In this document: one piece after another, positions 1,683 through 56,326 of the stretch
How positions within the stretch are numbered: the first letter of the stretch is position 1
Layout of the letters: every line of letters begins with the position of its first letter
DNA from: Phallus indusiatus
Lineage: Eukaryota > Basidiomycota > Agaricomycetes > Phallales > Phallaceae
Length of the DNA: 64,000 nt
Reading direction: 5' to 3'
Assembly: GCA_027605045.1 (NCBI GenBank)
Contig: JAQFWX010000022.1
Span: 124,001-188,000, forward strand
Translations under genes and position numbers: made by a program
The notes under the pieces: generated by a model
Seen by the model: only the letters and a program-made list of their open reading frames with translations
Told to the model about the DNA's origin: nothing
Databases searched by the model: none

Positions 1683-2013
1683 AATGTGCTACATATTTCT
1701 TCGTCCCCACTCCTCGGCTGGCATGTGGTTTCTTCTTTCTCTTCTTCAACTCTAAAAAAGCAGAAAAAAGGAATAAATATCACCGCCGACCTTTAGTTAG
1801 TTCAAATCGACTCAGGCTAAGGTTAAAGTTGTTTTTGTGGCTTCAAGTTGAGATAAAGATGTGAAAGTGATAGTCGGGACGGTAGATGAAACGTAATGGT
1901 TGCAATGATTGAAAATTATGCTGCTGTATGCGCCGTACAGTCACTTGGGCACTTGTTAATGATGTATATTTATTTTCAGAATACAGTATATTGTCTTGGA
2001 ACTTATCAAGCAG
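1683..2013. other. Intergenic, nothing recognised
   Basis: This stretch between the rad9 pseudogene and the P450 stop codon shows no coding match, repeat or RNA that I can identify. Confidence 0.5.
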
Positions 2014-4089: not shown

Positions 4090-4148
4090 CGTAAAACCCA
4101 GGTAACTTAAATAAGCAACCTGAACATCAGTCCAGAATCAGATGAGAG

Positions 4149-4185
4149 GAGGTGCTCCAGATATTAAACCCAGATCACTGATGAA
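4149..4185. repeat. Half of a short inverted-repeat element
   Basis: The stretch ending AAACCCAGATCACTGAT, preceded by GGTGCTCC, matches one end of the palindromic element at 19534-19639. Only one end is present, so it is probably a decayed or truncated copy. Confidence 0.35.
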
Positions 4186-5288: not shown

Positions 5289-6870
5289 TCAAAAATTGGA
5301 TCGCTGTAAGTGCGCCAGTGGGATATGGGGATAGCTCCACGTCTCTGTCTCCTGGCGACTCACACCAGTTTGGCTTTTTAAGTTCAAAGTTAAACGGCCG
5401 ATGAGCACATTAGTCATTCTATAAATAACATATGAGTGAAACGAAAGCGCTTCCGTGTTGCTCACTCACACAGTGCTGATGCTAAGTCATGAGAAAAAAG
5501 AAAAGAGATGGCTTGAGTCAGGATAGACAGTGTCTATGATGAAAATATCCGAAACGTACAAAGATAATATATTCTTCAGATCAGTCTAGACATAGATCGA
5601 TTCAGCTTGGGGAATTGAAGATTAATGCTATATCATGTGATACGCACTGCCAATGTAAGGCCGGTAGTGATCCACGCAGTATTAATGAGAACCACGACTA
5701 CAAAATACAGCACCCCGTCACGAAGAAGCACGCGAAAGAGAGAGGAGGTATTTTTGATTTCTGTTCGAATATATAGACCCCATAGGAGTAGGATTATGGT
5801 AAACCCGTCGAAAACAATTGAGGGGACGACGAAAAACACATCCAAGTCTCCGCTTTACAAGTTTTGACAGCCTCAAGTCAATAATTTGAAATTTCCGGAG
5901 AATTAAACTCACATGTTTGGGTTAGCGACCAAAACACAACCAAATGTTACTGAAGTACGTGGAATAATCACAGCTACAAATAAAGTTAAGGATATAAAGC
6001 TCCCAAAGCTCTTTTGAAGCAAGGCTTACGTCCTGAATTTTGAAGAGTGAAACTCATGAGGCATAGTTGGACGGTCCAAATGCTCAACAATATGAGCAAC
6101 ACCAAATTATTTTTCTTATGCACGGCATAGACCCTTGGAGGAACCTTTAATTAAATCGTTGTGATTGATTGAAGTTTCTGGATGTTCTTTTACCTCATAA
6201 TCAGCATGATCTCAGAGATTAAAACAACAACTTCCGTGAAAAGACCTTCAAATTTAGCGAAATGCTGACACCTTAAGCAATTTCAGTGCAAGTGATTTTT
6301 GATCCATTGAAAACACACCGCTGTAAAATAAAATGAACAAGACTTGAACACCAGAATATTCGTGAACCCGTGAACACCTACGCTCAATGTCCAGTTGGGT
6401 GAGAATAAGGCCACGATGCAGACCACAGAAGCCATTATTGCGAAGTATCGATTAGCTACAAACAATACGTTGACTGTTCGTAAAAAATGAGACATAAAGT
6501 CTGAATATATTGTTTTATACATACTAGGACTAAGAGCGGTTTTCCAAACAAATTCTACCTGAAATCTCTTCAATTTCATTGCTTTTGGTAAAGGAAATGC
6601 GACTCACTTCATCACGGAAGGTCAATATGAAATCATAGTAAAGAACTGTAACCGCTATCAAAGCAAATGCCTGATAAAAATGTACCAATAAACGTTGCGC
6701 AAACAATGAGCTAAGAGCCTACATCTTCGATACGTCTGTCCAAGTCGTGAATCTTCCAATATGCGCGCCGATTATAAAATAACTCACAGATGATTTCCGG
6801 AAGTGATTAGTGACAATATGGCGGCTGTCTCCGCAGATGGGAGGGCTGTGTTGGTTGTGTTTTCGAACAT
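5289..6870 (-). CDS. DUF6533-type integral membrane protein (left arm)
   Basis: A multi-exon membrane protein of the basidiomycete DUF6533 family, function unknown. The start is ATG at 6870 (MFENTTNTALPS). Visible segments in order are the family signature LYYDFILTFRDEVEFVWK split across exons, NRYFAIMASVVCIVALFSPN, a hydrophobic segment around IVFDGFTIILLLWGLY, RDGVLYFVVVVLINTAW, and a C-terminal exon with TNVLIGRLTLNLKS ending at TGA 5289-5291. Several hydrophobic helices suggest a 7-TM-like topology. It is divergent from the O-methyltransferase at 8182, and its mirror-image homologue is at 24484-26045. It may act in transport or sensing for the pathway, which is inference only. No disabling lesion was seen. 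Confidence 0.78.
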
Positions 6871-7630
6871 GACAAACAAATTCGAATGAAGGAACACAAT
6901 ATAAGGATCTCCACCGAATCTTTATATTTTGACTAAGAATTTGAAACGGAGCCTTGAAGAATAAATACCATCAGTGGTAGCCAGTGTCATTGGTTCAAGT
7001 ACTTGAACCGGAACCTTCGCTTCGGATCGTGTTGATTATGTGACAGTCTGTACAAGTATTGGTGCCCCTTTGATTTAATCAGATTCAATCCGTAATTTAC
7101 TATTTGATACCTCAATCAAAATCGGAATTGAGTTTGAGAAATGTTGGGCAGTGCAATTTTTGCATGATGGCCGCTTGCGGATTCTCAGAGTCTAATGATT
7201 TTCCTGATCTTCGCTCAGGTCAGTGTAAGTCAGATGGGCCAAAATGTCCCAGGCGGCCGGGCCAGATCTTCAGAAGCTTCCTTCAGCCCGGCCATGCCGA
7301 AGACAAAGCCGCCGAACCGCGGCGCTAGAGTTATAACGGTGATCAACTTGAAGGGTCCAAATTATTCTTGAAAGGCGTCTTCTAGCTCTTCTCCCATTGA
7401 ATGAAATGCCTGATAAGATATGATCCATGCAAATGGACAACAATGGGTTAAGCTCCATTCCAATTCTATTATCAACTGGTTTGGCTGAGGACTTGCGCCA
7501 AGTCAGCAAATATACACGAATTTTTTCATGATCGAACTCACGATCATCTTTGCACCAGACTGAGATTGTCCAACTGAGCTTGAGTTTGTATTGTTTAATA
7601 TCGAATGTCGGTTGGCCTCATGGTTCAAAT
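6871..7630. other. Shared upstream region of divergent gene pair
   Basis: Non-coding sequence between the DUF6533 gene (-) and the methyltransferase (+). Together with 7631-8181 it forms a 1.3-kb possible bidirectional promoter. No gene was recognised. Confidence 0.5.
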
Positions 7631-7785
7631 GGGATGGGACGGGATGGGATGGGATGGGACGGGATGAGATGAGATGAGATGAGATGAGATGAGATGAGAT
7701 GAGATGAGATGAGATGAGATGAGATGAGATGAGATGAGATGAGATGAGATGAGATGAGATGAGATGAGGTGAGACGAGGTGAGAT
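7631..7785. repeat. Pentanucleotide microsatellite (GAGAT/GGGAT)n
   Basis: Thirty-one consecutive 5-base units: a GGGAT/GGGAC block first, then a long pure GAGAT run, then degenerate units (GAGGT, GAGAC). It lies in the shared upstream region of the left-arm divergent pair; the equivalent right-arm region has no such array. Long open frames across it are artefacts of the repeat. Confidence 0.95.
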
Positions 7786-8120
7786 GCCATGTCATCCGTG
7801 CCACGATGTCTTTCTCATGAAACTTCATTTATCAAATCTGCTTCTAGGTTACTACATTTATGACTCATTTTGTGATTTTCTAATTTTGACATATCAATAC
7901 TGGTGAATTGTGGCTGCGGTGAGTGACAGCTGATACTCAAAAGTCCCGGAACCCTAAATATTTTAATAATAGAGGGACTGTGCCAACATGATCGAAGTTC
8001 AGAACTTCAGTCTGGTAATGACTTTCAAAAGAAGACTTGAAAGATTAGTGTCAGATATGGAACTTACCCTTCAGAATCATAATACACAAGACGAGTAGGC
8101 TCCCATATCGTACTCATCGA

Positions 8121-8127
8121 TATATAA
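8121..8127 (+). promoter_or_regulatory. TATA-like box of O-methyltransferase (left arm)
   Basis: TATATAA lies about 61 bp before the ATG. The surrounding stretch is conserved at the equivalent position before the right-arm gene (23595-23601 on the minus strand), which supports a promoter role. Confidence 0.6.
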
Positions 8128-8181
8128 CCCACTTGCTTTGTTCACACAGGGCAGCGACAATTATTCTTATTCGATATCCCA

Positions 8182-10032
8182 ATGTCCAAAATATCACCCT
8201 TGCGTCAACTGGTTAACATAATATCTCAGTCCGTCGATGAGATTGAGACTGCCTTGACAAAGAACAATCTTAAACATCCTAGTCTCGATGAGCCGTTCAA
8301 TCCGTTTTCTGCTGAAGAAGCTGCAATAATGGCACCCGAAGTCAGACAACCTGCCGATCTCGTTGTTGCTGCTTGCGCACAATTGAGTGCAATTGTCCAC
8401 ATTCCTGCAATGACCCTATACGACGCCGTCGGAGGTGTATGTAAATTCTTGCTTATTAGGTATAATTCTATTCATGGCATTATCAGTTCCATATAAGTTC
8501 CGCAATGCGCGCAGCTATGGAAGCTAATGTCGCAGAGATTTTGAGAGGGAAGAGTGAAGGGGTACATGTCAATGATATTGCCGCACAGACTGGAGCTGAT
8601 CCTGCAAGACTGGGCAAGTGTTTCTTTTAACTTTTGTATTTATTTTAATAAGTATTCATTGATTCAGCTCGGATCCTGAGACTCTTAGTTACACATCACT
8701 TATTCAGGGAAGTGACACCTGACGTGTTTGCCAACAACAGATTATCTTCAATGATGGATACTTTGAAGTCTGTAGAAGACATCAAGGCAGAGTCAGTTAC
8801 CACCAAAATTTCCGTGTATTCCGTTATTCATTGATTTATCAGTAAAGTCAACAAGCACACAAACACACCCGGGATTGCTGCTTTGCTTGAGCATAGGTTA
8901 GAGTTCTTCAATTTTCCCCGAAAAGGTTATATACACACATTTTATTAGCGCAGATGAAATGATGAAAGCTTCAGCCTATATGCCGGAAGTTTTGTATGAT
9001 CCTGTCATGAGGTCCTCTGAATCCCCTCAGCACACACCCCTTGCCGTACGTTACAGACTTTATTTTATGATAAGACGAAAGCTAAACTCAGTCCGATCGG
9101 CACTTAGCTCGCATTTAAGACTGACAAATTTGCTTTCGACTGGTTTGAGGAACCTGGGAATGAGTTCAGACTCAAACGGTTCGCCGCTGCGATGGAAGGT
9201 GTTGCCAGAGTAGACCCACCTAATGCAATCTTGTCCGGGTTCCAGTGGGGAAGCTTAAGAGCCAAAGATTTGATTGTAGATGTCGGAGGTGGATTAGGTC
9301 ACCTTATATTGAAGATCGCCAAACAACATCCCAATTTCCGTTATATCGTACAGGATCGCGCACCAGTTATAGAAGAGGCTAAAAATGTAAGAGCGCATGG
9401 AAATATAAAAAAAAAATGCGCGCTCATATGAATTAGTTCTGGGAAACGAACCTACCTTCAGCTCTAAAGGATGGAACCGTTACGTTACAAGGTAAATTAC
9501 CCACAGTCTTTTCCTGTACAAATCAATTAATTCCAGCCTTCCTGTCAGTTCATGATTTCTTCACTCCGAATCCCAAAGCAGATTCAGATGTTGCTGTATT
9601 TCTATGCCGTATGATCATCCATGACTATCCTAAGCACAGGGCTGCCGAGATTCTCAAACACCTTCGTGCTGCGGCTGGTCCACAAACGAAATTGCTTCTC
9701 GTAGAGCAGGTAGTCCCATACGCGTCCCGTGGATTCACCGCGCAGTCTAAGTTCAGCGCAAAACTTCATGTTGAGCCCCAAGAACCATTATTGGCCAACA
9801 CAGGCAAGGCTAAAGCGATCGCTTACACAGGAGACATGCAGGTGCGTAAGGTATTCGTACAGATGGAGTGATATCGTTGAATATCATTAACTAGATGTTC
9901 GTTGGTTTGTTTGGCGAGGAGAGGACAATGGGGGCATTTGAAGAACTTCTTGAAAGCGTTGGTTGGAAGGTTGACGATGTTTTCTTGATCCCCGGCTCTA
10001 TTCATAGTCAAATTCTCGCTATTCCCATTTAA
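8182..10032 (+). CDS. SAM-dependent O-methyltransferase, plant COMT-like (left arm)
   Basis: Transfers a methyl group from S-adenosylmethionine to a hydroxyl, probably on an aromatic metabolite. It is read over many short introns. The N-terminal part matches the dimerisation/winged-helix domain (PEVRQPADLVVAACAQLS, then an ARILRLLVTHHLFREV segment). The C-terminal Rossmann domain shows SAM motif I VDVGGGLGHLILKIA, followed by FRYIVQDRAPVIEEAK. Then come HDFFTPNPKADSDVAVFLCR, the IIHDYPKH segment where the family's catalytic His is expected, and LLLVEQVVP. The last exon is FVGLFGEERTMGAFEELLES to a stop at 10030-10032. It is convergent with the UbiA gene and has a mirror homologue at 21697-23546. 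Confidence 0.9.
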
Positions 10033-10640
10033 AGTGATGATGAATACTGTAGCGAACAGGATAAGAGCCCATCTCCATGTTGGTAGACGTCTGTAATAAA
10101 TAATAACACTCTGCTAGTGCAACTGCAACAATAACCAATTTAACGATTATGAAGCAATAATGAGAGAACTTCAGGTGAACGAGGTCGGAGCCTGGAGGCG
10201 GGGTTATCGAGGACGCCGAATTTTTTGAAAAGTTAAAATTCGGAAGTTCGGATGTTGGAAGTGGGACGACTCGGGAGGAGAACCATATGGCAGAAACGAC
10301 GACAAGCCAATGCTCTAAAACGATGTGTTAGGACATGCGCTGTACAGACAGTCCCGTACGCGTTACCTCGCATTACTTGGAGCAGAATGCATATGGCATC
10401 ACATGACACAAAGTAACACTTCGAATTCCACGCCACGATGTTCTTGATATTATTATTGACTCGGAACCTAGAGCTTAAACCTGTATTTATTATATAAGAT
10501 TGTTCTCACCCCAGGGCCTACACCAGGTGGGATCTTTGATAGTCAGTTTTTGTTTGATAAGACTTATTGTGGTAAATTACAAGAGGACGGGTGATCATCA
10601 GTTACCTGGAATCAACATAAATTTATTTATTCTCCCTAAA
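10033..10640. other. Intergenic between convergent genes
   Basis: The 3' flanks of the O-methyltransferase and UbiA genes. No gene or repeat was recognised. Confidence 0.5.
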
Positions 10641-11950
10641 CTAAAGTCTCGATAGATATTGTGAAAATAAACCAAAATAAACTAGATAGCCAAGCTGTGT
10701 TGCATTGCCCGTAAACACCTTGGAGCAACTTGCGTTATTCTCAAAATCGACAGTAAGAAGTTGCCAAGAAAAATACAGAACCGGCGCGCCGACAGCGCAG
10801 ATATAGTAGAAAGCCGAAGCACCTAGGTTTACGCCGCAGATGTAGAGAGTAGCTATGAATCCGAAAGCGAAGCCCGCTAATATTGGACGGGCGGAATGAT
10901 GGAACAAAACCGCTGTGGATTTGATGCCAAGACGTATATCATCCTTCAAATCCATCATCGCATATATCGTATCAAAATATATACACCAACTAGGGATATC
11001 AACGCCCAGTGTTCTGGGAAATGAAATGAAATAAGGTTGTTGACTTACGAACAGGTGCCAACGAAGAGGATCCCCGCGGTGCCATAATTGATGTCTCCAG
11101 TGAATGATGCATATGCTACCAGAAGACCCCAGTTTGCCGCAATTCCTTCCCAAAATGAACTTCGACGAAAATAGAAAAAAAAAATTATTACCTAGCCATG
11201 CCTGGGGCCAGTAGGTGATGCGTTTCATAAATGGATACAACGGCACCCAAAAGAGTAATCCGAACGATCCGAGCTTGAAACTAAATTATGATACAGATTG
11301 ACACTTGTCATATGAGCAGGTCGACTTACGCGAAAGAATTTGCGTAGAAAAACAATATAGCCATCATTGACAGTACTTGGGGAAGAAGAAACCATAGCGC
11401 TGCCGAGACACTAACGCGACCACTAGGAAGGGGTCGATTTTTTGTTCGTTCTCGTAGGTGAATGGAATGAAATATCTGCACCAGTACACAAACAAAGGTG
11501 TATACGTACCGACTTGCGAGTCCAGGTCTTTATCAATTATGTCGTTCCATATAGATCCAGCACTATGTAAAACATATCCCCCGAAGAAAAAGAATACAAT
11601 TGTTGCCTTCAACAAAGGAATAACCGGAATTTTTTTTTCGATACCAGCTAACATTAAACCCCAAACTATAATGTTTCAGAGATATGGCTACGCACGTCTG
11701 TCGAGTAACGTACTGCACGACCAAGCAATTGGATTAGGACCAAGGAAGTAGTGCAGCCTCGTAAGTTCTATAAAAGGAGCAACGCTCGAGGGAAAATAAT
11801 CCAAGATCGTTGGATTTCTAGAAAAATTTAACCTAAGTGAATATCAAGAACAAACAACGGATTTAAATTGACTTGCTTAGAGCGAAAAGAGAGCTTGAAA
11901 AGCATTACTTTCTGCATAGTGTCAACACTGGCTTGAACAGTGGGTTCCAT
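10641..11950 (-). CDS. UbiA-family aromatic prenyltransferase, COQ2-like (left arm)
   Basis: A membrane prenyltransferase that would attach an isoprenoid chain to an aromatic acceptor such as a hydroxybenzoate-type ring. The first Mg-diphosphate motif is SIWNDIIDKDLDSQV followed, after an intron, by ERTKNRPLPSGRVS. The second is YDTIYAMMDLKDD followed by GIKSTAVLF. Hydrophobic helices fill the rest, and the C-terminus is YLVYFGLFSQYLSRL. The start at 11950 is chosen because the ATG context (AGTCTTATGGA) is conserved with the right arm, but the first intron could not be resolved cleanly, so the N-terminus is uncertain. Such enzymes serve ubiquinone synthesis and fungal meroterpenoid pathways; the cluster favours the latter. 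Confidence 0.85.
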
Positions 11951-13324
11951 AAGACTATTTTCAGCTCAAATATGCGGGAGAGAATGGTGGTGGATTGGAG
12001 GAAAACATAAATCAAGTGACTCCGTCTTATTAATAAAAAACTGATCCCGTAGCCTTTATAACAACCCGACTCAAGGGGTACCTATGGTGAAGAATAAAGT
12101 TTAGAGAAAATGTACAATTTTTTATTGATTAAGAATCAGAGAATCAATGAAATACAATTTGAAACACGCGCAAAGAGATTGTATCCACGCTAAAGCCTCA
12201 GTTCCGTTAAGGTTTTCAATCATGCTGGAAGAATCTCGCCTCGTGTGTAAGTATCTGTCTTCGAAAAGGGGATCATTGACGTGCCCATATGGCTTTTTGA
12301 GAAAAGGATAGAATGTGATGTCCCTGGTTTGTCCGGGCCTAATTGGATTGAGTACACTCATACACAACCGGAGTTCTGCGGTGATGTTCAAGCTCAGGAG
12401 TCTTTTTTGGGGAATCGATAATGTAAAGCAAGATAGATCAGTGTCCCACGACTGTCCCTAAGCGTCCCTGCGATGTCCGTACCCTGAGGGGGATCAGTTG
12501 CGTTGTGAGCGCCTCACCGGTCACCCTGATTCCCGTTTTTATTGAGACTGGTCACCACGGTGCACCGAGCCTGTCTGCCCTTTCCGCAGGGCTCCTAAGC
12601 AGCGACGGAGCGTCTGACGAGGCTGGAACAATAAATAGAGAGAAAGTTGGGAAATGAAATTTGAACAGGTATCACGGAATATAAAGAGGCGAAGGAGGAA
12701 AGTACGCGTCTGACGACGGCGAATGAGGGTGCTACGGTTAACCTCGACTAGTGGTCGTGTCTGATGAAGCTTTGAAGCGTATACACTTCCGTTACGGACT
12801 GTCCCGTGCTTGGGAGCTTGGGCCTTGGGGCCAACTCGGGGCTGACAATCTATAGCTTGCTCGGAGCTTTCCTTTTGTAGCCTACGCCAGGGTTCATCAT
12901 CATCTCCAAGGAATTCAGCTCGACCTACATACAATAACCCTTTCCTATATCGAACTTCGTGTTAATTTTCTCTTGAAAAACAAACGGAAGTCAAATGATC
13001 TCGAAAAATGACTGGAAATTAGTCCCTATTCTATCTGTTTCCTTCGGTCGAGTCATATTTCAAACTTGTATCCCAGTGCCCGATGTTCTCTTCATCTCTC
13101 AGTGAATTTGGCTCGACATATATACATCGGCGAACGGGGAACATCGAGCTTCGTATAGATTTCTCTGTAAAAAAAGGACATAGGTGCTGACATCCGAGTC
13201 AAGGCGACGTTCAGTAGGCGCTAATGGGATGTGACTTACGCGTTACACTCACCCTTTTTCTTGTCTTCCTCGAGTCAATGCCTATCTTCTGGTGCCAAAA
13301 GCCTAAATTTACGAACTATACTCG
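11951..13324. other. Intergenic; includes right copy of rad9 upstream repeat
   Basis: The segment from about 12994 to 13324 duplicates the upstream flank at 179-747 without its extra block. The rest (11951-12990) contains a 131-codon open frame on the minus strand with no domain or homologous copy. No gene is called. Confidence 0.5.
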
Positions 13325-15208
13325 ATGCCGTTCCAAGCCACACTCAACGCACAGTCCTTGAAAGGTATTGATTATACTTTCTTCTGTTCGTGTTTATTTA
13401 CACGAAATATTCATCCAGTCTTCACAAAATGCCTTGCTTGTCTGGCGCGTTATGGCGACGACATCGTTTTGCAAGCGGATCTTACCTCGGTCTCTTTGAG
13501 TAGCACAAACTCTTCCAAATCTGCGTTCGGTCAAATCAAGTTCAATACTGTTTTCTTTGAAAAATACTATGCTCGGCCAAGTCAGCCGCCGGGCTCAACA
13601 TTCAGTACGCAGCCCAGCCAGCAAGATCCAATTTTAGGCGAACTGGTGGTCAAAGTATGTATGTTACACTATCATCTTCGTCACCAACGCTAATACAGTC
13701 TCTCTCATTTAGTCACTTCTGTCGATTCTGAGGCACAAAACCATTGATAAGATAATTGAACGCTGTCGTTTGTCTATACCTGATCCGGGTCGTGAAACTG
13801 AAGATGGCGAATCTGATGAAGAAAACGATAGTTTGGAGCTCAAGCTAGTTGTCCGTCTGTACTGCAAGCACGGTATGTAATTGCTGTTTCTTTTTTTTTT
13901 TTGCTTCGTTGTAGTGAGCTACCCATACATTCTGGTTCCCAGGGGTTGTAAAGACGCATAAGCTCGCTTTATTGACGCCAACTTATGCTTTTGCCCCGCG
14001 CACCACATCCATGCCTTCAGAATCGCGTGTTGTTATTGGTCCTCGGGCTCTCAAAGATGTCCTGGAGCACTTTTCTCATATGAAAAACCTGAAACACGAT
14101 CCTCAGCTACTTTGGACATTTGGTCTCAATGACGTAAAAGTTAAGACTCATCAGTCTACAACTGATGGGAAAGGTGAGAGCATTGAGCTGGACTTCGTTT
14201 ATGATAGTTCGCTGTACATTGTTACTAGGTGGCAAGAGTCAGCATCTATCGACGGAGATCTCTATCAACGCAGATGAGTTTGACATGTACCAGGTTCACG
14301 ATCCTCCTTCTGGCATTGGTTTTCATTTGAAAGAGTTCAATGCAAGTCGTCTTCGTGCTTTTTGTCTGTCTTGTGCTGAGTAGCACCACATTGCAGGCTA
14401 CTATAGCTCTCGCCGAAGCACTCTCGACGGTACTTATCATACGGTTCACAGAGCCTACGGAACCTGTTTTCATAGAGTTTGAATCAGATGCTACAGACTA
14501 CGAATTTCTTTTCATCATCTCGACAACTAACAGCACCTATGACAATATCCCTGGCAGTCACAACAACCTCAAAAAGCGCCAGCGCATGGCCGAACAAACC
14601 GATGCGGGAGACGCTGAGGTGGAACATTCAGAAGATGGCAGCTCTTCACGGGCACACAAAAGACGGCCAGATCCAGTTGTCGGTCCTTCTCGTCCACTTT
14701 CTTCCGCTAACAACACTCGAGAAGGATCCTCTGTCCTAATATCGTCTAGTGTCTACAAAGAAGTGATTCCCAACTCGAATGAAAGCGATACACGACAAGG
14801 CTCTGTTGATCTACAGGCACAATCTATCTCCAGAAATGCATCACTATTCCCTCCGGGGGCTTCACAGGGATCTGATCGTGAGATATTTAATCATGGTGCT
14901 TCGAGGGTGGAACACCTTGCGTACGAAGACTTTGAGGCTATGATGGATGCTGAGGGTACTGAGGTTGGTATGAGCACGAAAGTTGGGATCATGGCTGTAG
15001 GTCAACGACATGGTCAAAATGTTGGTAGCACGGACCCGGAAGAGGACAGTCATATGGAAGAGGTTGCCGAAAGTTTTCCGGCAACGCAACCTTCAACAGC
15101 TCGCTATAAGGTGGGTAATCGATTGACTACCGATGCGGTTTTTAGTTTTCTCACCAACATCACCGATTCTTCTGTTTTTAGCCATTTCAACCTTTATTCG
15201 ACGATTGA
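13325..15208 (+). CDS. rad9: Rad9 checkpoint clamp subunit
   Basis: A subunit of the 9-1-1 (Rad9-Rad1-Hus1) PCNA-like clamp of the DNA-damage checkpoint, acting in the nucleus. My exon model is 13325-13364, 13419-13654, 13713-13872, 13943-14173, 14229-14341, 14397-15110 and 15182-15208. It closes in frame at 506 residues. Recognisable family features are the DDIVLQADLTSVSLSSTNSS strand region, the SAFGQIKFNTVFFEKY segment, SLLSILRHKTIDKIIERC, the LYCKHGVVKTHKL strand, GIGFHLKEFNATIALAEAL and VFIEFESD. A long acidic, serine-rich tail follows, ending in the 9-residue last exon PFQPLFDD, like the terminal peptide of other Rad9 proteins. Intron 14342-14396 uses GC-AG. Its upstream flank and first half are duplicated at 179-1682. 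Confidence 0.9.
14342..14396 (+). other. rad9: GC-AG intron in rad9
   Basis: The 5' splice site reads AAT|GCAAGT and the 3' site TTGCAG|GCT. Removing these 55 bases joins HLKEFN to ATIALAEAL, which matches the family, and keeps the frame. GC donors with an otherwise strong AAGT context are the known minor class of U2 introns. Confidence 0.75.
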
Positions 15209-16920: not shown

Positions 16921-17118
16921 ACAGTTTGTATTCCTTCAATTTTCTAATGAGCAATTCGCAATACTCTCAAGTTAATCTGTTTGAGATAGTGCAGTTGTCA
17001 AGATTCGTAGAGCCCATACAGCGCAAGTTGGCACAGCATGTATATATTTACCTCTGAACCCGACGTGCGGCAGACACGGCATCATCCGTACTCAATTTAA
17101 AAAAAACCAATAACATAC

Positions 17119-17150
17119 CTTTATTCCTTGAACAAGGGGAATTGTCCTGG
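17119..17150 (-). pseudogene. HSP20 exon remnant
   Basis: About 32 bases match the end of the second exon and splice donor of the small heat-shock gene at 49102-49672 (reading TIPLVQGIK then GTATG). The order and strand relative to the preceding pseudogene are the same as at 48-49.7 kb, so this is the tail of one duplicated segment rather than a chance match. Confidence 0.55.
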
Positions 17151-17910
17151 ACATTCACGGTTTTAAACAACAAAATAAAATGACGGCTACATTTTAATTG
17201 AATTACACCGAGGGGGATAAGCCGAAACGATGATGAAAACGATGAAGAAAACAATTTTTTAGAGGGTATTTATTCAGATAATTATGGAGATAATGCTTAA
17301 AAGTGAGCCTTTCAGGAACAGCCGAGTAGATTATATAAGGATATCATGTGACTTATTTGCGTCATCATTGACGCGTGACGCGTGACGAGTAACTTTTATG
17401 TAACTAGCGCCGGATGGAGCGGCCATTTCCCTGCACCGTTGTATACAGTATGACACCCAGATAAACTTAAACTCAGGTTACAAAGTTGAACATGGTACAT
17501 AATGATATTAGGTGTTTCGAAACCTTACAGTGTTGTCTTGTATTGAATTATCTCCATGTACCATATTTGAGGAATTTTAAACTCAGTTTCATCTCCAGAT
17601 TTTAGCTTCCGGATGGTACTGCAGAACCATGCTTGGTGCAGGGAATACTCTTTGGTGCGCGTGGAACGCACCACAATGTTGTCTAATTGTTTGAGTTGAG
17701 CAGGACTTAGCTTTAGCTTTCAAACTCCAACTTATAGAACTTATAGTAATAATAGTAGTATTTTATATGACTCATTTGCAACCATACATTCGTATATGTA
17801 ACCCATGAGAAACATCAACTTGTCATGTTGGATTTATTTAAAACGACGAGCTTTCGTGGGAGTAAAAAATGCAAGCTTTGGTCCCCACCGCCCTGTTGGC
17901 CCAGTATTAA
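17151..17910. other. Intergenic, nothing recognised
   Basis: AT-rich sequence with no gene, RNA or clear repeat found. Confidence 0.45.
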
Positions 17911-17988
17911 TTAATAAATAAGTCAAGGCGCTAACTTCACATTATAAACCGATAAAATGTGAAGTTAGCGCCTTGACTTATTTATTAA
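17911..17988. repeat. Perfect 33-bp inverted repeat (hairpin)
   Basis: The left arm 17911-17943 and right arm 17956-17988 are exact reverse complements with a 12-base loop. The core reads GTCAAGGCGCTAACTTCAC. No flanking target duplication was found. It lies about 100 bp before a helicase remnant. Confidence 0.9.
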
Positions 17989-18082
17989 CTAGAGGCGCCC
18001 AGGGTCGCAGAGCCCTTGCATGTAGCACTGGATAAGCGTTTTAACACCAACTTCTCAAACCTACAGGGCAGGTACATCGTCT

Positions 18083-18497
18083 ATATTACCCGCCAACGTT
18101 TATACTGTTCCGCCCAGATCCAAACCCGTCTGCGCAATTCAAGACTCTGCCACAAAGAGTTGTACCCGTGCAGCCTCAGAAGTTAGGACGGGATTTCAAA
18201 ATAGGTGGGGGAAAAATTAGGATCCACCGGCTACAATATGTTATAACGCCAGCATACGCGTTTACAGATCACAAAGCGCAAGGGCAAACAGTCGCTCCCG
18301 TCATCGTTGATCTGGGAAAACCTCCGAGCGGAAGACTGACTCCTTTCAACGCCTATGTTGCACTTTCGAGATCGAGGAGTCGGGACGAAGTGCGACTTCT
18401 AAGAGAATTTGAGAAGAAGCTCGTCACGGGGGAGATGAACGTTGATCTCATGGAATTCGACGAGTGGCTTCGTATAACAGAAACAAGTGGGATTTAA
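18083..18497 (+). pseudogene. PIF1-type helicase C-terminal remnant
   Basis: The frame from about 18083 (YPPTFILFRPDPNP) runs to TAA at 18497 and matches only the C-terminal end of PIF1-like helicases of the kind carried by Helitrons. It shows YAFTDHKAQGQTV (helicase motif V region) and FNAYVALSRSRSRDEV (motif VI region). The ATP-binding Walker motifs and all upstream domains are missing, so it cannot work as a helicase. It may be the tail of a decayed Helitron or a gene fragment. Confidence 0.7.
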
Positions 18498-19533
18498 GCA
18501 TTGGCAAAGAGGGTTTGGAGATGTGATGTACGGTTGAAATAAACAAAAAAGGTAGACGATGCTGTAAGAATCCCCGGCGTCTTAGGCTGGTAACCTTGAA
18601 GTGAAAATGTTAAAATTATCGGATACTTGTAAGAAAATTAGATACCTGAGAGTCTCGCTATACACTTAAAGCAATGCATTGTGTGCTTCCCTTGAACGTG
18701 GCATGGAGGATTCGAATTGCAGTGGTCGCTGGAGGACACTCCGCCAACCGGCATTAGCATCGACCAAGGAAGGACGCTTCCTCCGTGTCAACTTGATGCC
18801 TTTATTTTTAGCGATATATTCGAGACCAAATGCCAGAGGCTGCGAGAACAGTCGAGAGTAACGATGCACGAAAGTGGTGGGTGTATACGGGTGATCAAAT
18901 CAAGGCAGACGACCACGGATGCTCAGACGTCACGCGTCACTCGCGCACCAGGAAGATTGGATTGACAGAGACGAAGCATGATGTGCTGCATTGAAGAGTA
19001 GGATGGTACAATGTAAGATGCTTCGATGCAGCGTTAGGGACAGGTGGAGACAACCTGGACTGTGGCAAACGACATCTAATGCGATTTTCTAACAGTAACG
19101 CCGTGAACTGAGAAAGCCGAGCTTCCGACTGTCACGTGGCTAGACAAATATGTACAAAGAAGTGCCACATGGAAGCAAATTTTGTGTGCAGCCAGAACCC
19201 TTGCTACATGCAAGGGAATTAATATAAGGCTTTTTGCGACATTAATAGGGAGCTACGATACGATCTCACCGGCACCGGTGAAATGCACACGGTCTTGTCA
19301 TTATGGGCCTGAACCGCACGTGGTATGCTTGAACCCGGAAAAAATCTTATAACAACGAAGCCAAATTCGATTAGCATGATCAGAAACTTTAAAAGAACTG
19401 AGTCTTTTGCGTGGGTACAGTTTTCCTGTGCGTAATATAATTTCCATGATTCTCTCATTTCAAAAATCTAAATTTTCTCACTCTCATTCTTGGGCATAAC
19501 CGTTCTCGAGACAGACTGTCGGAAAGGCCGCCG
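18498..19533. other. Intergenic, nothing recognised
   Basis: Several open frames of 60-80 codons overlap on both strands here without domains. None is called. Confidence 0.45.
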
Positions 19534-19639
19534 ATCAATGATCTGGGTTTCATCTCTGGAGCACGTCCCGCCATTTGAAGTGCTCTAGAAACTTCCAGAT
19601 GGGGAAACGTGCTCCTGAAATAAAGCCCAGATCACTGAT
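19534..19639. repeat. 106-bp palindromic element (MITE-like)
   Basis: The ends ATCAATGATCTGGGTTT and, read in reverse, ATCAGTGATCTGGGCTTT form an imperfect inverted repeat that extends inwards to GGAGCACGT on both sides. A related single end is at 4149-4185. Target duplications are not evident. Confidence 0.5.
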
Positions 19640-19703
19640 TAGTATACAGCTCTCTTGGCCACTTTTCGGTTTCCTTTCGCATATTTAAGCTGAGAACAGT
19701 CTT

Positions 19704-20986
19704 ATGGAGGCTCATTCAAGCCAGCGGCGTGCATAATATGCGGAGAGAGTGCGTTCATTTATATTTACTGAGTATTCTTGGTCTCCACTTATATTGAAAT
19801 TTCTATTAGGGGGTCAACAATTTTGGACTATTTTCCTTCTAGCGTCGCTCCTTTCGTAGAACTTACGAGGGTGCATTATTTTTTTGGTCCTAATCCAATT
19901 ACTTGGTCTTGCAGTACGTCGCTTGCCAAAAAAATAAACACATTTCTTACACAAGTCAAGTATGGGGTTTAATGTTAGCTGGCATTGAGAAAAAGATACC
20001 GGTTATTCCTTTGTTGAAGGCATCAATGGCTTATTTTTTCTTCGGTGGATACGTTTTGAATAGCGCCGGCTCTATATGGAACGACATAGTTGATAAAGAC
20101 CTAGACTCGCAAGTCGGTATGCATATCTTTGTTTTTGTACATCGGAACGGAGATATTTACTTATAGCTCGAAGAACGAACAAAAAATCGTCCCCTTCCTA
20201 GCGGTCGCGTTAGTGTCTCGGGAGCGTTATGGTTTCTTCTTCCTCAAGTACTTTCTATGGTGGCTGCTTTGTTTTTCTACGCAAATTCCTTCGCGTAAGT
20301 CAAAAATTGTCTATATGAAAAGAGCTAACTCATACAATAAATTAGTTTCAAACTCGGATCGTTCGGACTATTCTTTTGGGTGCCTTTGTATCCGTTTATG
20401 AAACGCATTACCTATTGGCCCCAGGTGTGGTTAGGTAAGGGTTTTTTTCCCTTATTTTTGTACAAGTAATCGGAATCGGCATTGAAGGAATCACTTTGAA
20501 CTGGGGCCTTCTGGTAGCATATGCATCACTTACTGAAGACATCAATTATTACACCGCAGGAGTTCTCTTCGTTGGTGCCTGTTCGTAAGTAAACACGTTA
20601 CTTTTTATTCAGTCATTCTAAACTAGGTTATCTTTAGTTGGTGTATATATTATGATACGATATATGCGATGATGGATCTGAAGGATGACATTCGCGTTGG
20701 TATCAAATCCACCGCTGTCTTGTTCGGTTCTTCTGCCCATCCGATATTGACAGGGTTCGCCCTTGGATTCGTAGCCAGCCTCTACGTCTGTGGTCTAAAT
20801 CTTGATGCTTCGGTGCCCTACTATATCTCTGCTGTTGGCGCCCCGCTTCTGTACTTTTCTTGGCAACTTTTTACTGTCGATTTCGAGAGCAATGCGAGTT
20901 GCTTAAAGATGTTCAAAGGCAATTCGTCACAGCTTGGTTATTTGGTCTATTTTGGCTTAGTTTCACAGTACCTATTGAGAGTGTAA
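19704..20986 (+). CDS. UbiA-family aromatic prenyltransferase, COQ2-like (right arm)
   Basis: Mirror homologue of the gene at 10641-11950. It keeps both catalytic aspartate motifs: SIWNDIVDKDLDSQV joined after an intron to ERTKNRPLPSGRVS, and YDTIYAMMDLKDDIRVG followed by IKSTAVLFG. The C-terminus is YLVYFGLVSQYLLRV, stop at 20984-20986. One reading of the N-terminus is an ATG at 19704 with an intron of about 44 bases, giving MEAHSSQR then LFLVSTYIEISIRG; the first exon remains tentative. The remaining introns all read as plausible GT-AG. It is convergent with the right-arm methyltransferase. Two intact paralogues could have different acceptor or chain-length preferences, which is inference. 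Confidence 0.85.
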
Positions 20987-21696
20987 CTCAAGAAGAATGT
21001 GAAATTCATGTGGGTCGAGAACCTGACCGTTATTTCGGATGTTCCCACAAATATCATTTCCTAAGCGAGTAGCTTAGGTTTGTACAATCGATTCAAATAT
21101 ACATCAATAACATATGATTATCGGAATGAGGATGTCACCAGGGATCATAGGGTGAAACAATTATCCTATATGAAACTCCAAGTTTAAGGTTAATATTTAA
21201 GGTTTGGATTTAATAGATACACGGAAGTCCAGTTTTGTAATGCCACGAAATTGTTCCTGTAGCGAACGAACACATGCTCTACCGGTGCTAGAGAGTAACA
21301 CACCAGGGAATCTCTTACACAAGGCCCTCACAACCTGCCGTTCCGATGAAGCTGTGAAGCGTTCTAGCTGGATATATTGCTTTTGTGTGATCCTAGATCT
21401 TCTCCAAGTCATGTCAACCCTCAAATTTCAATAGTCTCCCACTCTCTCTATCATCTGCTGTCGTTATATCATCTTGATCTTGCTTTTAAGTCTCATTTTT
21501 ACTATCGCAAACGTGTTTCATATGCATCATTGTATATTAGCAAAAGACTGAGTTATTATCATCTTAATTGGTTGTAAAGGGAATGAATCGCTCCCACAGT
21601 TTCCAATCAGTTTCCAATCACAAAATATTTCTTATTACTGATTTCATCAACACGAAGATTAGTAGTAAACTCAGTATTCGCTACCGTATTCAACCT
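20987..21696. other. Intergenic between convergent genes (right arm)
   Basis: The 3' flanks of the right-arm UbiA and methyltransferase genes, with no gene recognised. Confidence 0.5.
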
Positions 21697-23546
21697 TTAG
21701 ATGGGAGTAGCAAGGATTTGACTATGAATAGAACCAGGAATCAAGAAAACATCATCAACTTTCCATCCTGCGCTTCCAAGGAGCTCTTCAAATGCACCCA
21801 TTGTTCTTTCCTCGCCAAACAAACCAACAAACATCTAAATTATCAAACTCGATCATCTTGCTTACTGTATGAAAATGTCTTACACACCTGCATATCTCCT
21901 GTATAAGCGATTGCTTTGGCCTTGCCTGTGTTGGCCAGTAATGGCTCCGGAGGTTCGATATGGAGTTTTGCGCTAAATTTAGACTGCGCAGTGAATCCAC
22001 GAGACGCGTATGGGACCACTTGTTCTACAAGAAGCAATTTGGTTTGTGGACCGGCCGCAGCACGGAGGTTTTTAAGAATTATGACAGCCCTGTGTTTAGG
22101 ATAGTCATGCATGATCATACGGCATAGAAATACAGCAACATCCGCTTTGGGTTGCTGAGTAAAGAAGTCGTGAACTGGCAGAGATGTAGAAATTAATTAA
22201 TCCATCATCAGAGAGGAATGCCATGACTTTAAGTGTTATACCTTGCAACGTCACAGACCCATCGTTCAGAGCGGAAGGTGAGTTTGTTTTCCAAAACTAT
22301 TTTATATGAGTGAAGACTCGTTTTATTTTCATGAGCTCTTACAGTTTTAGCCTCCTCTATGACTGGTGCGCGATCCTGTACGATGTAACGGAGATTGGGA
22401 TGCTGGTTGGCGATCTTCAATACAAGGTGACCCAATCCACCTCCGACGTCGATAACTAGATCCTTAGACTTCAGGTTTCCCCATGGGAACCCAGACAAGA
22501 TCGCATTTGGTGGGTCGACTTTAGCGGCACCTTCCATTGCAGCTGTGAACCTCTTGAGTCTGAATTCATTCCCAGGTTCCTCGAACCAGTCGAAAGCAGA
22601 TTTGTCAGTTTTAAAGGCAAGCTTGAAATCGGTCAGTTTGATCATTTTATGGAACAGACACCTAACATACGGCAAGCGGTGTATGTTGAGGGGATTCAGA
22701 GGACCCCATGACGGGATCGCACAAAACTTCGGGCACATAGGCCGAAGCTTTCATAATCTCATCCGCACTATCAGAGAGAAAGATGGTCTATTTTCTCGTG
22801 AGTGAATCAAACAAAGGCTCTCACCTATGCTCGAGCAAAGCGGCAACCCCGGGTGTATTCGTATGCTTGTTGATAGGACTAATAAATTGGATAAATAACG
22901 AGATAAGGATGTATTCAATAAAACTGACTCTTCCTTAATTTCCTCTACAGATTTCAAAGTATCCATCATTGAAGATAATCTGTTATTGGAAAACACGTCG
23001 GGTGCCACTTCTCTGAACAGGTGATGTGTAACCAAAAGTCTGAGGATTCGGGCTGCACCAAGGAATCATTAATCAACTCATAAAACTAAGGGGTTTATTA
23101 GATACACTCACACAGTCTTGAAGGATCGGCTCCGGTCTTTGCAGCAATCTCGTTGACATGTACCCCCTCACTTTTGCCTCTCAGAATCTCCGTCACATTA
23201 GCTCCAATGGCAGCCCGGATTGCAGCGCTTATGTGGAACTGATAATAATGTCATGAACGGAGTGTCACTGAGCAAACAAAAGTATACATACTCCTCCGAC
23301 GGCATCATATAAGGTTAGCGCAGGGATATGAACAGTCGCACTGAGCTGGGCGCAAGCAGCAACAAGAAGAGTGGCAGGTTGCCTGACTTCGGGTGTCATT
23401 ATTGCAGCCTCTTCAGCAGAAAACGGGTTGAATGGCTCATCAAGGCTGGGATGTTTGAGGTTGTTCTTTGCCAGGGCAGTCTCAATCTCATCGACGGACT
23501 GGGATATTATGTTAGCCAATTGACGCAATGGTGAAATCTCGGACAT
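21697..23546 (-). CDS. SAM-dependent O-methyltransferase, plant COMT-like (right arm)
   Basis: Mirror homologue of the gene at 8182-10032, starting MSEISPLRQLANIISQSVD at 23546. It shows the same domain order: a dimerisation/winged-helix region (PEVRQPATLLVAACAQLSA), SAM motif I VDVGGGLGHLVLKIA, LRYIVQDRAPVIEEAK, the IMHDYPKHRAV region where the catalytic His is expected, LLLVEQVVP, and the last exon ending VFLIPGSIHSQILATPI with stop at 21697-21699. No frameshift was seen when introns are removed. The TATA-like stretch before the start is conserved with the left arm. It is divergent from the right-arm DUF6533 gene. Confidence 0.9.
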
Positions 23547-23594
23547 TTGGAAGAGAGAATCTTTGGAGTGTTCAATATGAATCAAACAAGTGGG

Positions 23595-23601
23595 TTATAT
23601 A
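23595..23601 (-). promoter_or_regulatory. TATA-like box of O-methyltransferase (right arm)
   Basis: TATATAA on the minus strand about 55 bp before the ATG, inside a stretch conserved with the left-arm promoter (8111-8134). Confidence 0.6.
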
Positions 23602-24483
23602 CCGATGAGTACAATGTACTAGTAGGAGTAGTCTTGGGTATAGTTCTCAGGAAAAAAAAACATATATAACACGTAACAACAAATCTTCCTTCTAGAATAC
23701 TACCGAACCAAATTTCAGAGCTTCGATCATGATGGCACTGCCCCTCTACTATAAAAAAGTCGTTGTGCAACGAAGTACCGGTCCGTCGGCAGCGCCCGGA
23801 ACTATTGAATATGGGCTGGTATTTTGTCACCTACAATTGATTAAGTTTGATATGCCAACCAGAGTGTCACGGAACCTATTAGACATCATGGCCAAAAAAA
23901 TGGATTACGGAGTCTTATCGCATCGCGACACTCATCTCAGTTGAGCTCATACAAATCCCAGCCGACATTCGGTTCAAGGTCAAGGCTGTAAGTTTGATAG
24001 TTTAATATCTCAGTTGAAAATTTTTGTTTGAGATGACCCCTGAATCAAATCACGGAATTCACATGTATTTGTTGCCAACTTCTCAGCCACAGGTTCGGAA
24101 TGAATAAAATAGAACTGAGCACACGGTTTCTATCTAATTGTTCAACGGTCTCAACAGCGAAGACACTGGGTATGTAGGCGATCATGCGAAAACGTTGATC
24201 AGAGGTAAACGTTTAACCTGTCAAATATTTCTGAATCTTTCCGAATAAATGAGATCTTAGGTGCTGTTGTATGAGATGGTGATAGTGGATCAAGAGATCC
24301 AATCAGGAGGGCACTTATGAAGGCTGTCACATAACCCCGAACCAAAAACTTTGATTTCCCGGTAAACCACTACACCAATGACACTGCATAACTTTTTTTT
24401 CCGTTAAATTACCTCCTTACCTTGATTCTTGATATAATAAGGAGAGTATTGTCGTCATGTTTCTTCATTCGAATTTCTCCTCT
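23602..24483. other. Shared upstream region of divergent gene pair (right arm)
   Basis: A possible bidirectional promoter between the right-arm methyltransferase and DUF6533 genes. It lacks the microsatellite found in the left arm. Confidence 0.45.
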
Positions 24484-26045
24484 ATGTTCGAAAACACAAC
24501 CCTCTCTTCTGGTTCAGAGGAGCAAGCCGCCATATTATCACTAATTAGTTCCGGAAATCACCTGTGAGTTATTTCGAGGATTTCGTGATCGTGCGTCCTG
24601 AAAGATTATGACTCGAACAGACGTATTGAAGATGTAGGTTTCTAGCTTATTTTAAGCTCATTTGTCTATCCGTAATTATGTTCAGGGTTTTTTTTTGGTA
24701 GCGGTTACTATTCTTTTTTATGATTTTATCTTGACCTTTGGCGATGAAGTGAGTTTTTATTGCCTCTTTCCAAAATAATAAAATGAAAAGAGTTTAGGTG
24801 GAACTTGTTTGGAAAACAACTTACAGTCCTAGTATGTTGCATGAATCAATATTCGACATTATTCTCATTCCTTTTGAAAAAGTCAACATATTGTTTATAG
24901 CTAATCGGTACTTCGCAATAATGGCTTGTACGATCTGCATCGTGGCCTTATTTTCACCCAATTGGTCGTTGAGCGTAAGTGTTCATGAGTTCCTGAATAA
25001 TGCGCTTTTCAAATCTCGTTAATCCTTTTGCAGCGGTCTGTTTCCAATGACGTGAATTATAGAACTTGCCCTGACACAATCTAGGTGCCAGCATTTCGCT
25101 AAATTTGAAGGCGTTTTCACGGAGGTTGTTGTTTTAATCTCTGAAATCATGTTGATAATGAGGTACAAAGAACCTCAAAAATGTTGGGTTTAGTACAAGG
25201 ATTGAGCTAAATACTCTTTCTTTCTAGGGTTTATGCCGTGCATAAGAAAAATAATCTGGTCCTACTCCTGTTATCGAGCATTTGGACCGCTCAACTTTGC
25301 CTCATGAGTTTCACCCTTCGAAATTCGGGGCGTAAGTGCTTTACACACCTTTATCAGGGTTGATATCTTGAGCTTCGGTTGTAGCCGTGATTATTCCGCG
25401 TACTTCAGTAACATTTGGCTGCGTCTTGGTCCCCAATCCCAACATGTGAGTTTCATTCTCAGAAAACTACATATTGATCTTGATGGATACTACCGTAATT
25501 TGTAAAGCGGAGATCTAGATTTATTTTTCATTGTCCCCTCGGTCGTTTTCGATGGTGTTACCATAATCCTCCTTCTATGGGGTCTATATTCTCGAACAGA
25601 AAACAAAAACACGTCCTCCCTCTTTCGAGTGCTTCTTCGTGACGGCGTGTTGTACTTTGCAGTCGTGGTTTTCGTTAATACTGCGTGGATATCTACAGGC
25701 CTTACATTGGCGGTACGTATTATTTAATAGTCTTTGATTTTACCCCAAATTGAAAAAATATATCCTCAGACTGATCTTAAGAATATACTAGCTGTGTACG
25801 TATTGAGTATATTCAAGATTATCATTACTCAAGACATTTTCCTTTTTTGTGACTTAGCCCCAGCACTGTGTAAGTGAGAAACACGGCAGAATTCGCATTT
25901 ATTTTAAGTATATTTCCTTAGGATGACAAATGTTCTCATCAGTCGTTTGACTCTGAATTTGAAAAGTCAGAGTGGTAGGAGTCGCCAGGAAGCAGACACC
26001 TGGAGTTACCCCCTCTTGCCACGCTTACAGCGATCCAATTTCTAG
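24484..26045 (+). CDS. DUF6533-type integral membrane protein (right arm)
   Basis: Mirror homologue of the gene at 5289-6870. The start MFENTTLSSGSEEQAA at 24484 is followed by short exons reading the DUF6533 signature LFYDFILTFGDE then VELVWK, NRYFAIMACTICIVALFSPN, RVYAVHKKNNLVLLLLSS, PSVVFDGVTIILLLWGLY and RDGVLYFAVVVFVNTAW. The last exon has TNVLISRLTLNLKSQSG and ends LPRLQRSNF with a stop at 26043-26045. About seven hydrophobic segments are present. Function unknown. Its retention beside the enzymes in both arms suggests a link to the pathway, which is inference. Confidence 0.8.
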
Positions 26046-56315: not shown

Positions 56316-56326
56316 GCACCGAGCCT

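What the first reader, a model, noticed from the sequence alone, without database searches (positions are those of the whole stretch)
5289..26045. Mirror-image duplication of a three-gene metabolic block
Left arm order is DUF6533 (-), O-methyltransferase (+), UbiA (-); right arm is UbiA (+), O-methyltransferase (-), DUF6533 (+). Midpoints of the paired genes fall at about 15.67-15.86 kb, so spacing is nearly preserved. All six genes keep their key motifs and show no lesion when introns are removed, although introns and third codon positions have diverged. An old inverted duplication with both halves kept suggests selection for dosage or for two related activities. The axis region and the spacer genes are useful for working out how it arose.
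Basis: partly seen in the sequence, partly recalled or inferred. Interest (0 to 1): 0.85.

Follow-up and report, generated by a model that had tools for sequence, protein, structure and literature searches.

The report
Mirrored gene trio on one haplotype
A mushroom chromosome carries two mirror-image, intact copies of a three-gene block that probably makes a small molecule, and the matching place on what looks like the partner nucleus's chromosome has a different set of genes instead.

Summary
The mirror-image duplication is real. The arms match inversely over about 5 kb (75-78% identity) and all six genes splice to open frames. Synonymous divergence agrees among the pairs (OMT 0.77, UbiA 0.68, DUF6533 0.59; overlapping intervals), with dN/dS 0.08-0.16: one old block copy, both halves constrained. 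The UbiA and DUF6533 models of both arms lie letter for letter in public proteins; one per arm sits on a contig shorter than the unspliced gene, so both arms are transcribed. OMT transcription is unproven. The trio is an older linkage: consecutive genes in Clathrus columnatus, one 36-kb contig in Pleurotus djamor. New: the assembly holds a second haplotype. Contig C173 is 96-99% identical on both flanks but replaces window 388-27841 with tandem rad9-UbiA units; no OMT was found there, nor this DUF6533 in the parts read. Right UbiA is closer to a C173 copy (dS 0.41) than to left UbiA (0.67), so the mirror probably predates that split and C173 probably lost genes. Likely role: prenylation and O-methylation of an aromatic; product unknown. 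Dosage selection is not shown.

The parts
5289..6870 (-). left-arm DUF6533 gene, 13 exons, 300 aa
   Evidence: spliced model contained letter for letter in database protein P0228 (model refined with that protein); PF20151 48.6 bits, cut-off 24.1
8182..10032 (+). left-arm O-methyltransferase gene, 9 exons, 477 aa; intron 2 is GC-AG
   Evidence: open spliced frame; PF00891 and PF08100 above cut-off
10641..11950 (-). left-arm UbiA prenyltransferase gene; my model starts at 11917, database protein P0108 starts 11 codons earlier; intron 1 is GC-AG
   Evidence: model contained in P0108; upstream start checked; PF01040 160.9 bits
19738..20986 (+). right-arm UbiA prenyltransferase gene, 7 exons, 308 aa
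   Evidence: model identical to P0107; PF01040 157.9 bits
21697..23546 (-). right-arm O-methyltransferase gene, 9 exons, 471 aa; acceptor of exon 8 shifted 12 bases relative to the left arm
   Evidence: open spliced frame; PF00891 and PF08100 above cut-off
24457..26045 (+). right-arm DUF6533 gene (297-aa model from 24484; P0227 starts 9 codons earlier)
   Evidence: model contained in P0227 (model refined with that protein); upstream start checked; PF20151 50.2 bits
6319..6320 (-). 2-base micro-exon of left DUF6533
   Evidence: GT-AG on both sides; needed to give the SRCQHF of P0228
25034..25035 (+). 2-base micro-exon of right DUF6533
   Evidence: GT-AG on both sides; needed to give the SRCQHF of P0227
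4543..4791 (.). weak outer extension of the left arm, pairs with 26694-26895
   Evidence: two inverted BLAST pieces, 79-81%
26694..26895 (.). weak outer extension of the right arm, pairs with 4543-4791
   Evidence: two inverted BLAST pieces, 79-81%
2080..4059 (-). cytochrome P450 gene next to the left arm only (low end approximate, not spliced)
   Evidence: PF00067 in exons 3709-4137 and 2628-2933; YGYGRR / RVCPGRGF haem motif split by an intron at 2361-2257 (motif recalled); no DNA match for it elsewhere in the assembly, which scored 40 of 148 candidates
12992..17030 (+). rad9-like gene and following ORF in the spacer, 87-89% identical to long copies on C173
   Evidence: PF04139 46.4 bits
176..1682 (+). 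truncated rad9-like copy, direct repeat of 12992-13944
   Evidence: three pieces at 85-94%; PF04139 hit
17987..19219 (+). repeat between the arms (holds a helicase-like fragment, 18045-18494)
   Evidence: 100% copy at C123:113229-114461, 93% copy on C168; UvrD_C_2 hit below its cut-off
388..27841 (.). divergent haplotype block; its flanks are allelic to C173
   Evidence: left flank 97.4-98.9% to C173:540001-543169, right flank 96-97% from window 27842 = C173:570206
7629..7786 (.). five-base microsatellite (ATGGG/GATGA) between left DUF6533 and OMT

Best explanation
This is an old inverted duplication of a conserved mushroom metabolic trio: a UbiA prenyltransferase, a caffeate-type (COMT) O-methyltransferase and a DUF6533 protein, with a P450 beside one arm. 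It lies inside an unstable rad9-UbiA repeat region. Shown by sequence: the arms have the same age within error, all six genes are open and constrained, UbiA and DUF6533 products of both arms are in the databases, and of the two haplotypes in this assembly only one was found to carry the OMT. Inferred: UbiA joins a prenyl chain to a small aromatic ring, the methyltransferase caps a hydroxyl group, the P450 oxidises the product, and DUF6533 serves in the membrane. The second arm is kept either for amount or for a slightly different substrate. The other haplotype most likely lost OMT and DUF6533 after the mirror had formed, leaving UbiA copies among rad9 copies.
For: Antidiagonal over all three genes. 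dS: OMT 0.772 (0.62-0.98), UbiA 0.684 (0.54-0.91), DUF6533 0.593 (0.45-0.78); dN/dS 0.079, 0.139, 0.157. All four UbiA and DUF6533 models lie letter for letter in database proteins P0107, P0108, P0227, P0228. The listed contigs for P0108 (left UbiA, 1125 bp) and P0227 (right DUF6533, 1334 bp) are shorter than the genomic spans (1310 and 1589 bp), so these are spliced. L and R group apart from the Clathrus protein for OMT (support 100) and DUF6533 (99). Allelic flanks of C173 and its different interior. UbiA DNA tree ((R,C173:567)99,L)84. Families above cut-off. A full-length UbiA match that is the better COQ2 candidate lies elsewhere (C13:750321, 192 bits).
Against: No product or enzyme activity is known. 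No database protein matches the right OMT above 64% over its length (72% over 64%; only the right OMT was searched), so OMT transcription is not shown. The node that groups L with R+C173:567 has 84% on DNA; in the protein tree R+C173:567 has 74% and the split of L, R and C173:567 from the other UbiAs only 43%. Loss of OMT/DUF6533 on C173 is inferred; no remnant was found in the parts of C173 read in full (540-550 and 552-572 kb), and C173:575.6-580.9 kb was not read. Trio order differs in Clathrus and Pleurotus, and Collybia nuda and Cyathus striatus have relatives on contigs of different lengths, so the linkage is not universal.
Confidence: 0.67

Rival explanations
1. The mirror arose in two steps: a direct tandem duplication of a rad9-UbiA-OMT-DUF6533-P450 unit, then a local inversion of the left unit, with later loss of the right-hand P450.
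For: On C173 the UbiA copies at 554, 567 and 582 kb all point the same way and stand among rad9 copies. In the window the left arm is flanked by direct repeats of the rad9 5' part, 176-1682 and 12992-13944. A P450 was seen only at the left.
Against: An inversion with a break inside rad9 should leave the rest of rad9 inverted near 12 kb; self-BLAST shows none. It needs more steps.
Confidence: 0.4
2. Assembly artefact: two alleles or collapsed repeats joined head to head.
For: The assembly holds both haplotypes, and contig C67 looks like a head-to-head join: DUF6533 hits pair up around 400 kb (my reading of the table).
Against: Aligned allelic stretches here are 96-99% identical, the arms 75-78%. 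Both flanks of the locus keep the same orientation and an offset of 418.4-419.5 kb to C173, which a foldback would break. Different spacer genes lie between the arms.
Confidence: 0.03
3. The C121 block came in whole from another lineage (introgression or hybrid nucleus), so the haplotype difference is not a loss.
For: The interior differs strongly (long pieces at 74-89%) while the flanks are 96-99% identical. R-UbiA and its positional counterpart differ at dS 0.41.
Against: A birth-and-death array with different copies lost in each haplotype gives the same picture. The rad9 copies are about as close between haplotypes (87-92%) as the two C121 copies are to each other (85-94%).
Confidence: 0.12
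4. The two arms have split functions: different aromatic or prenyl substrates rather than dosage.
For: About 17% of residues differ in UbiA and DUF6533, 12% in OMT. The UbiA N-termini and one OMT acceptor differ between arms.
Against: dN/dS is low and the families are shared; no positive-selection test was run.
Confidence: 0.35

Closest known systems
OMT-DUF6533-UbiA trio of Clathrus columnatus (Clacol_008603 to 008605)
   Same: same three families, consecutive locus tags on one contig; identities to the right arm 61%, 45%, 71%
   Different: one protein of each in the lists (the UbiA list shows 120 of 5896); gene order OMT-DUF-UbiA rather than DUF-OMT-UbiA; no mirror seen
Pleurotus djamor ONZ45_g12125 to g12131
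   Same: OMT, DUF6533, UbiA and a second OMT on contigs of one length, 35,863 bp
   Different: other gene numbers lie between; two OMTs but one UbiA and one DUF6533 in the lists; 45-59% identity
Basidiomycete UbiA-type aromatic prenyltransferases such as LaPT3 of Laetiporus sulphureus (PMC12790560, outline and abstract seen)
   Same: UbiA-type enzyme of a mushroom; LaPT3 prenylates hydroquinone
   Different: no sequence comparison with LaPT3 was made here; substrate of the present enzymes unknown
COQ2 / 4-hydroxybenzoate octaprenyltransferase (TIGR01474)
   Same: best NCBIfam match, 246 and 241 bits; only solved structure matched is 4od4, 4-hydroxybenzoate octaprenyltransferase
   Different: below the equivalog cut-off of 275.45; another full-length UbiA gene in the genome is the better COQ2 candidate

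Membership tests
Inverted segmental duplication | inverse-orientation homology over several genes with kept order | tested here: met
Inverted segmental duplication | gene pairs of equal age | tested here: met
   three dS values with overlapping bootstrap intervals
Inverted segmental duplication | single-step origin | tested here: inconclusive
   tandem UbiA copies on C173 and flanking direct rad9 repeats allow tandem duplication plus inversion
UbiA prenyltransferase (PF01040) | profile score above cut-off in both arms | tested here: met
   157.9 and 160.9 bits, cut-off 34.2
UbiA prenyltransferase (PF01040) | two Asp-rich motifs (NDxxDxxxD and DxxxD type; recalled) | tested here: met
   NDIVDKDLD / NDIIDKDLD and DTIYAMMDLKDD read in the proteins
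COQ2 equivalog TIGR01474 | score above equivalog cut-off 275.45 | tested here: not met
   246.2 and 240.8 bits
COMT-type O-methyltransferase | Methyltransf_2 plus dimerisation domain above cut-off | tested here: met
   both arms
COMT-type O-methyltransferase | methyl transfer to a phenol | not testable with these tools
   needs enzyme assay
DUF6533 (PF20151) | profile score above cut-off | tested here: met
   50.2 and 48.6 bits, cut-off 24.1
Fungal biosynthetic gene cluster | same gene set linked in other species | tested here: met
Fungal biosynthetic gene cluster | co-expression and a common product | not tested
   no expression table or chemistry at hand

The most novel reading that the evidence does not exclude
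The 27-kb block is an idiomorph-like, long-kept polymorphism of a metabolite locus: the two nuclei of one mushroom carry non-equivalent gene sets (a mirrored UbiA-OMT-DUF6533 pair against tandem rad9-UbiA units), so each nucleus contributes different chemistry, and the difference is held by selection rather than by chance loss.
Probability: 0.12. Interest if true: 0.75.

Novelty: new variant of a known kind. Interest (0 to 1): 0.47.

Why it matters
Duplicated and rearranged metabolite clusters are common in fungi (general knowledge). Less usual here: a mirrored copy pair is kept on one haplotype and not found on the other of the same assembly, and a linked OMT-UbiA pair travels with a member of the large uncharacterised DUF6533 family. 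Two papers in a library of 5.39 million name DUF6533 (listing). If the trio makes a prenylated, methylated aromatic, it gives a first handle on a role for one DUF6533 protein and a natural test of how copies of a cluster are kept or lost between nuclei.

Tried and rejected
Assembly foldback: rejected on arm identity, collinear flanks and near-constant offset to C173.

Mating-type linkage as the cause of the divergent block: STE3 hits lie on C153, C120 and C61, homeobox hits on C129, C148, C1 and C177; none of the 24 and 10 matches is on C121 or C173. Rejected as direct physical linkage on these contigs; contigs are not chromosomes, so looser linkage is untested.

Recent gene conversion between the arms: longest identical run 32 bases; rejected.

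My first DUF6533 models skipped the 2-base exon and mis-set two late exons; corrected after seeing P0227 and P0228. So the agreement of the DUF6533 models with those proteins is partly by fitting; the UbiA models were made before the search and were not changed.

The large DNA search scored 39 of 255 candidates and did not list the known match between the two OMTs, so absence is argued (3 of 3 candidates scored; 51 of 51), not. For DUF6533, one search scored 40 of 148 candidates and listed only the other arm for 5293-6896; one search scored 150 of 973, so neither is exhaustive. Of six C173 reading frames tried for the neighbouring genes, one gave a weak DUF6533 match and five gave none.

A 25-base element upstream of the P450 and twice upstream of right UbiA was not explained; among the 67 loci it occurs only in two that overlap the window. 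Paper searches for inverted duplications with fungal clusters (9 papers) and for haplotypes with Dictyophora indusiata (3 papers) showed no report of this locus in their listings; of these I read passages of one (PMC11766896). A micro-exon search was read as a listing only. No structure prediction was run.

Full report
WHAT WAS CHECKED. Self-BLAST of the window shows the antidiagonal in three long pieces at 75.5, 77.1 and 77.8% identity with midpoints 15667, 15859 and 15813.5, and two short pieces further out (4543-4791 with 26694-26895). The listing of inverted repeats agrees (25 of 45 pairs shown). Aligned arms keep intron positions. I spliced all six genes by hand from these alignments: OMT 477 and 471 aa, UbiA 318 and 308 aa, DUF6533 300 and 297 aa after correction. 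None has an internal stop. Exons are 83-84% identical (UbiA without exon 1), introns 58-63%, with no identical run above 32 bases.

AGE AND CONSTRAINT. NG86 estimates with 1000 codon bootstraps: dS 0.772 (0.62-0.98) for OMT, 0.684 (0.54-0.91) for UbiA, 0.593 (0.45-0.78) for DUF6533; dN/dS 0.079, 0.139 and 0.157. The intervals overlap, as one block event predicts, and the low ratios mean purifying selection. Unrooted protein trees put L and R together, apart from the Clathrus columnatus protein and the other relatives used, with support 100 for OMT (8 proteins) and 99 for DUF6533 (5 proteins). For UbiA (8 proteins) the split of L, R and C173:567 from the rest has only 43, so that tree alone does not show it. 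Taken together, the copying most likely happened after the split from Clathrus.

EXPRESSION. The protein database holds P0107, P0108 (UbiA) and P0227, P0228 (DUF6533), from source 'lgn'. All four models are contained in them letter for letter. The UbiA models were made before I saw these proteins; the DUF6533 models were refined with them. P0108 (left UbiA) is listed on a contig of 1125 bp and P0227 (right DUF6533) on one of 1334 bp, shorter than the unspliced genes (1310 and 1589 bp), so they come from spliced RNA: one gene from each arm. For P0107 (1352 bp against 1249) and P0228 (1759 against 1582) contig length proves nothing, but the proteins carry no intron-derived residues. The right OMT was the only OMT searched; its best full-length hit is 64% identical and the best partial one 72% over 64% of its length, so OMT transcription is unproven. 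The C173 UbiA copies (81-89% identical to R as proteins for 554 and 567) have no entry either: after 100% and 83% the next hit is Clathrus at 71%.

WHAT THE GENES ARE. Pfam: UbiA 157.9/160.9 bits, DUF6533 50.2/48.6, Methyltransf_2 plus dimerisation domain in both OMTs. The UbiA proteins score best against 4-hydroxybenzoate octaprenyltransferase (TIGR01474) but below its cut-off, and another full-length UbiA gene lies at C13:750321 (192 bits). The right OMT's best solved-structure match is 8pha, 'O-methyltransferase domain-containing protein', E 4.3e-52. A P450 flanks the left arm only (haem motif across an intron). The obvious reading is a small aromatic that is prenylated, methylated and oxidised; this is inference from families.

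THE TRIO IS OLDER THAN THE MIRROR. Matching locus tags and contig lengths across three protein searches place OMT, DUF6533 and UbiA side by side in Clathrus columnatus (Clacol_008603, 008604, 008605; contig 2,963,240) and on a 35,863-bp contig of Pleurotus djamor (ONZ45_g12125, g12127, g12130, with a second OMT g12131). Amanita thiersii has OMT and DUF6533 on contigs of the same length (93,602), its UbiA hit on another (37,165). Against: Cyathus striatus has UbiA and OMT hits, and Collybia nuda hits of all three kinds, on contigs of different lengths. The UbiA list shows the best 120 of 5896, so more cases may be hidden.

THE OTHER HAPLOTYPE. The window is C121:124001-188000 of a 67.2-Mb, 206-contig assembly. 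C173 is collinear with C121. Left flank: C121:121406-124387 against C173:540001-543169 at 97.4-98.9%. Right flank resumes at window 27842 = C173:570206 at 96-97%, and window 43526-47500 matches C173:586294-590262 at 97%. Nine paired hits, each pair in the same orientation, have offsets of 406.7 to 426.1 kb; the anchors nearest the locus lie at 418.4-419.5 kb. Between the flanks 27,454 bases in C121 face 27,036 in C173. C173 has rad9-like copies at 543, 559.6 and 569.5 kb and UbiA copies at 554 and 567 kb (a further one at 582 kb, outside the block), all on the + strand, and at least one DUF6533-like exon of another type (weak, E 0.014). No OMT was found there: one search found only the two arms and two distant C111 matches; one search found 33 OMT exon matches genome-wide, none in C173:540-590 kb. 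No close relative of the arms' DUF6533 was found in the stretches read in full (540-550 and 552-572 kb). UbiA divergences (bootstraps): R to C173:567 dS 0.407 (0.31-0.54), L to R 0.668 (0.50-0.90), L to C173:567 0.617 (0.46-0.80), C173:554 to 582 0.117 (0.07-0.17). The DNA tree is ((R,C173:567)99,L)84. The R-C173:567 and L-R intervals overlap slightly, so the order rests mainly on the tree. The mirror therefore most likely predates the separation of R and C173:567, and C173 lost OMT and DUF6533, or the two haplotypes kept different members of a larger array.

WHICH FUNGUS. No record is named. Size and contig number (67.22 Mb, 206) and the largest contig I met (C140, 3,398,106 bases) fit the Dictyophora (Phallus) indusiata strain ZS assembly: 67.32 Mb, 216 contigs, largest 3.39 Mb in the paper's table, though its abstract says 323 contigs (PMC9948255, passages). 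Clathrus gives the nearest named UbiA, and a Phallus paper calls C. columnatus closely related (PMC11766896, passages). This is likely, not proven.

ORIGIN. A single inverted block copy is simplest. A tandem copy followed by inversion is nearly as good, because the same region on C173 is a direct tandem array and because rad9 5' repeats flank the left arm. I cannot decide between them.

VERDICT. The dosage reading is one of two that fit. The new points are the linked trio in other mushrooms and its presence on only one haplotype of this assembly. Interest is moderate.

Noticed in passing
6319-6320 and 25034-25035: A 2-base micro-exon (CG) in both DUF6533 genes, with GT-AG introns on either side, needed to give the SRCQHF of database proteins P0227 and P0228.
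   Followed up: partly
G000 as a whole: The assembly appears to hold both haplotypes (collinear C173/C121; homeobox hits in five pairs, four of equal score; other families in pairs). If it is the D. indusiata ZS assembly, the published 'largest genome' (67.32 Mb) and 2.10- and 2.53-fold CAZyme excess over two other Phallus species (PMC11766896, passages) may be largely a doubling.
   Followed up: partly
C67, about 91-712 kb: DUF6533 and rad9-region hits pair up in inverse orientation around about 400 kb (my reading of the tables): a very large palindrome or a head-to-head haplotype join.
   Followed up: no
12992-15300, 176-1682; C173 and C67 copies: rad9-like genes (PF04139) give six profile matches in the assembly (19 of 19 candidates scored), all on C173, C121 and C67: several copies, some truncated, of what is usually a single-copy checkpoint gene (recalled).
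   Followed up: partly
4153-4177 (-), 19539-19563 (+), 19610-19634 (-): A 25-base element upstream of the P450 and twice, inverted, upstream of right UbiA; mean 0.00 matches in 100 shuffles. Shared control site or transposon remnant.
   Followed up: no
8614-8667 and 11818-11876: GC-AG introns in left OMT (intron 2) and left UbiA (intron 1), where the right arm has GT-AG.
   Followed up: no
36084-38183: Plavaka transposase (PF18759, 265 bits) inside a 4-kb repeat (about 34772-38815) 94-99% identical to copies on other contigs.
   Followed up: no
30774-31174, 33892-34291, 34374-34772, 51762-52160, 55921-56316, 63764-63935: A roughly 400-base repeat (the last copy partial), copies 86-96% alike in the window, with copies up to 99% on other contigs.
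   Followed up: no
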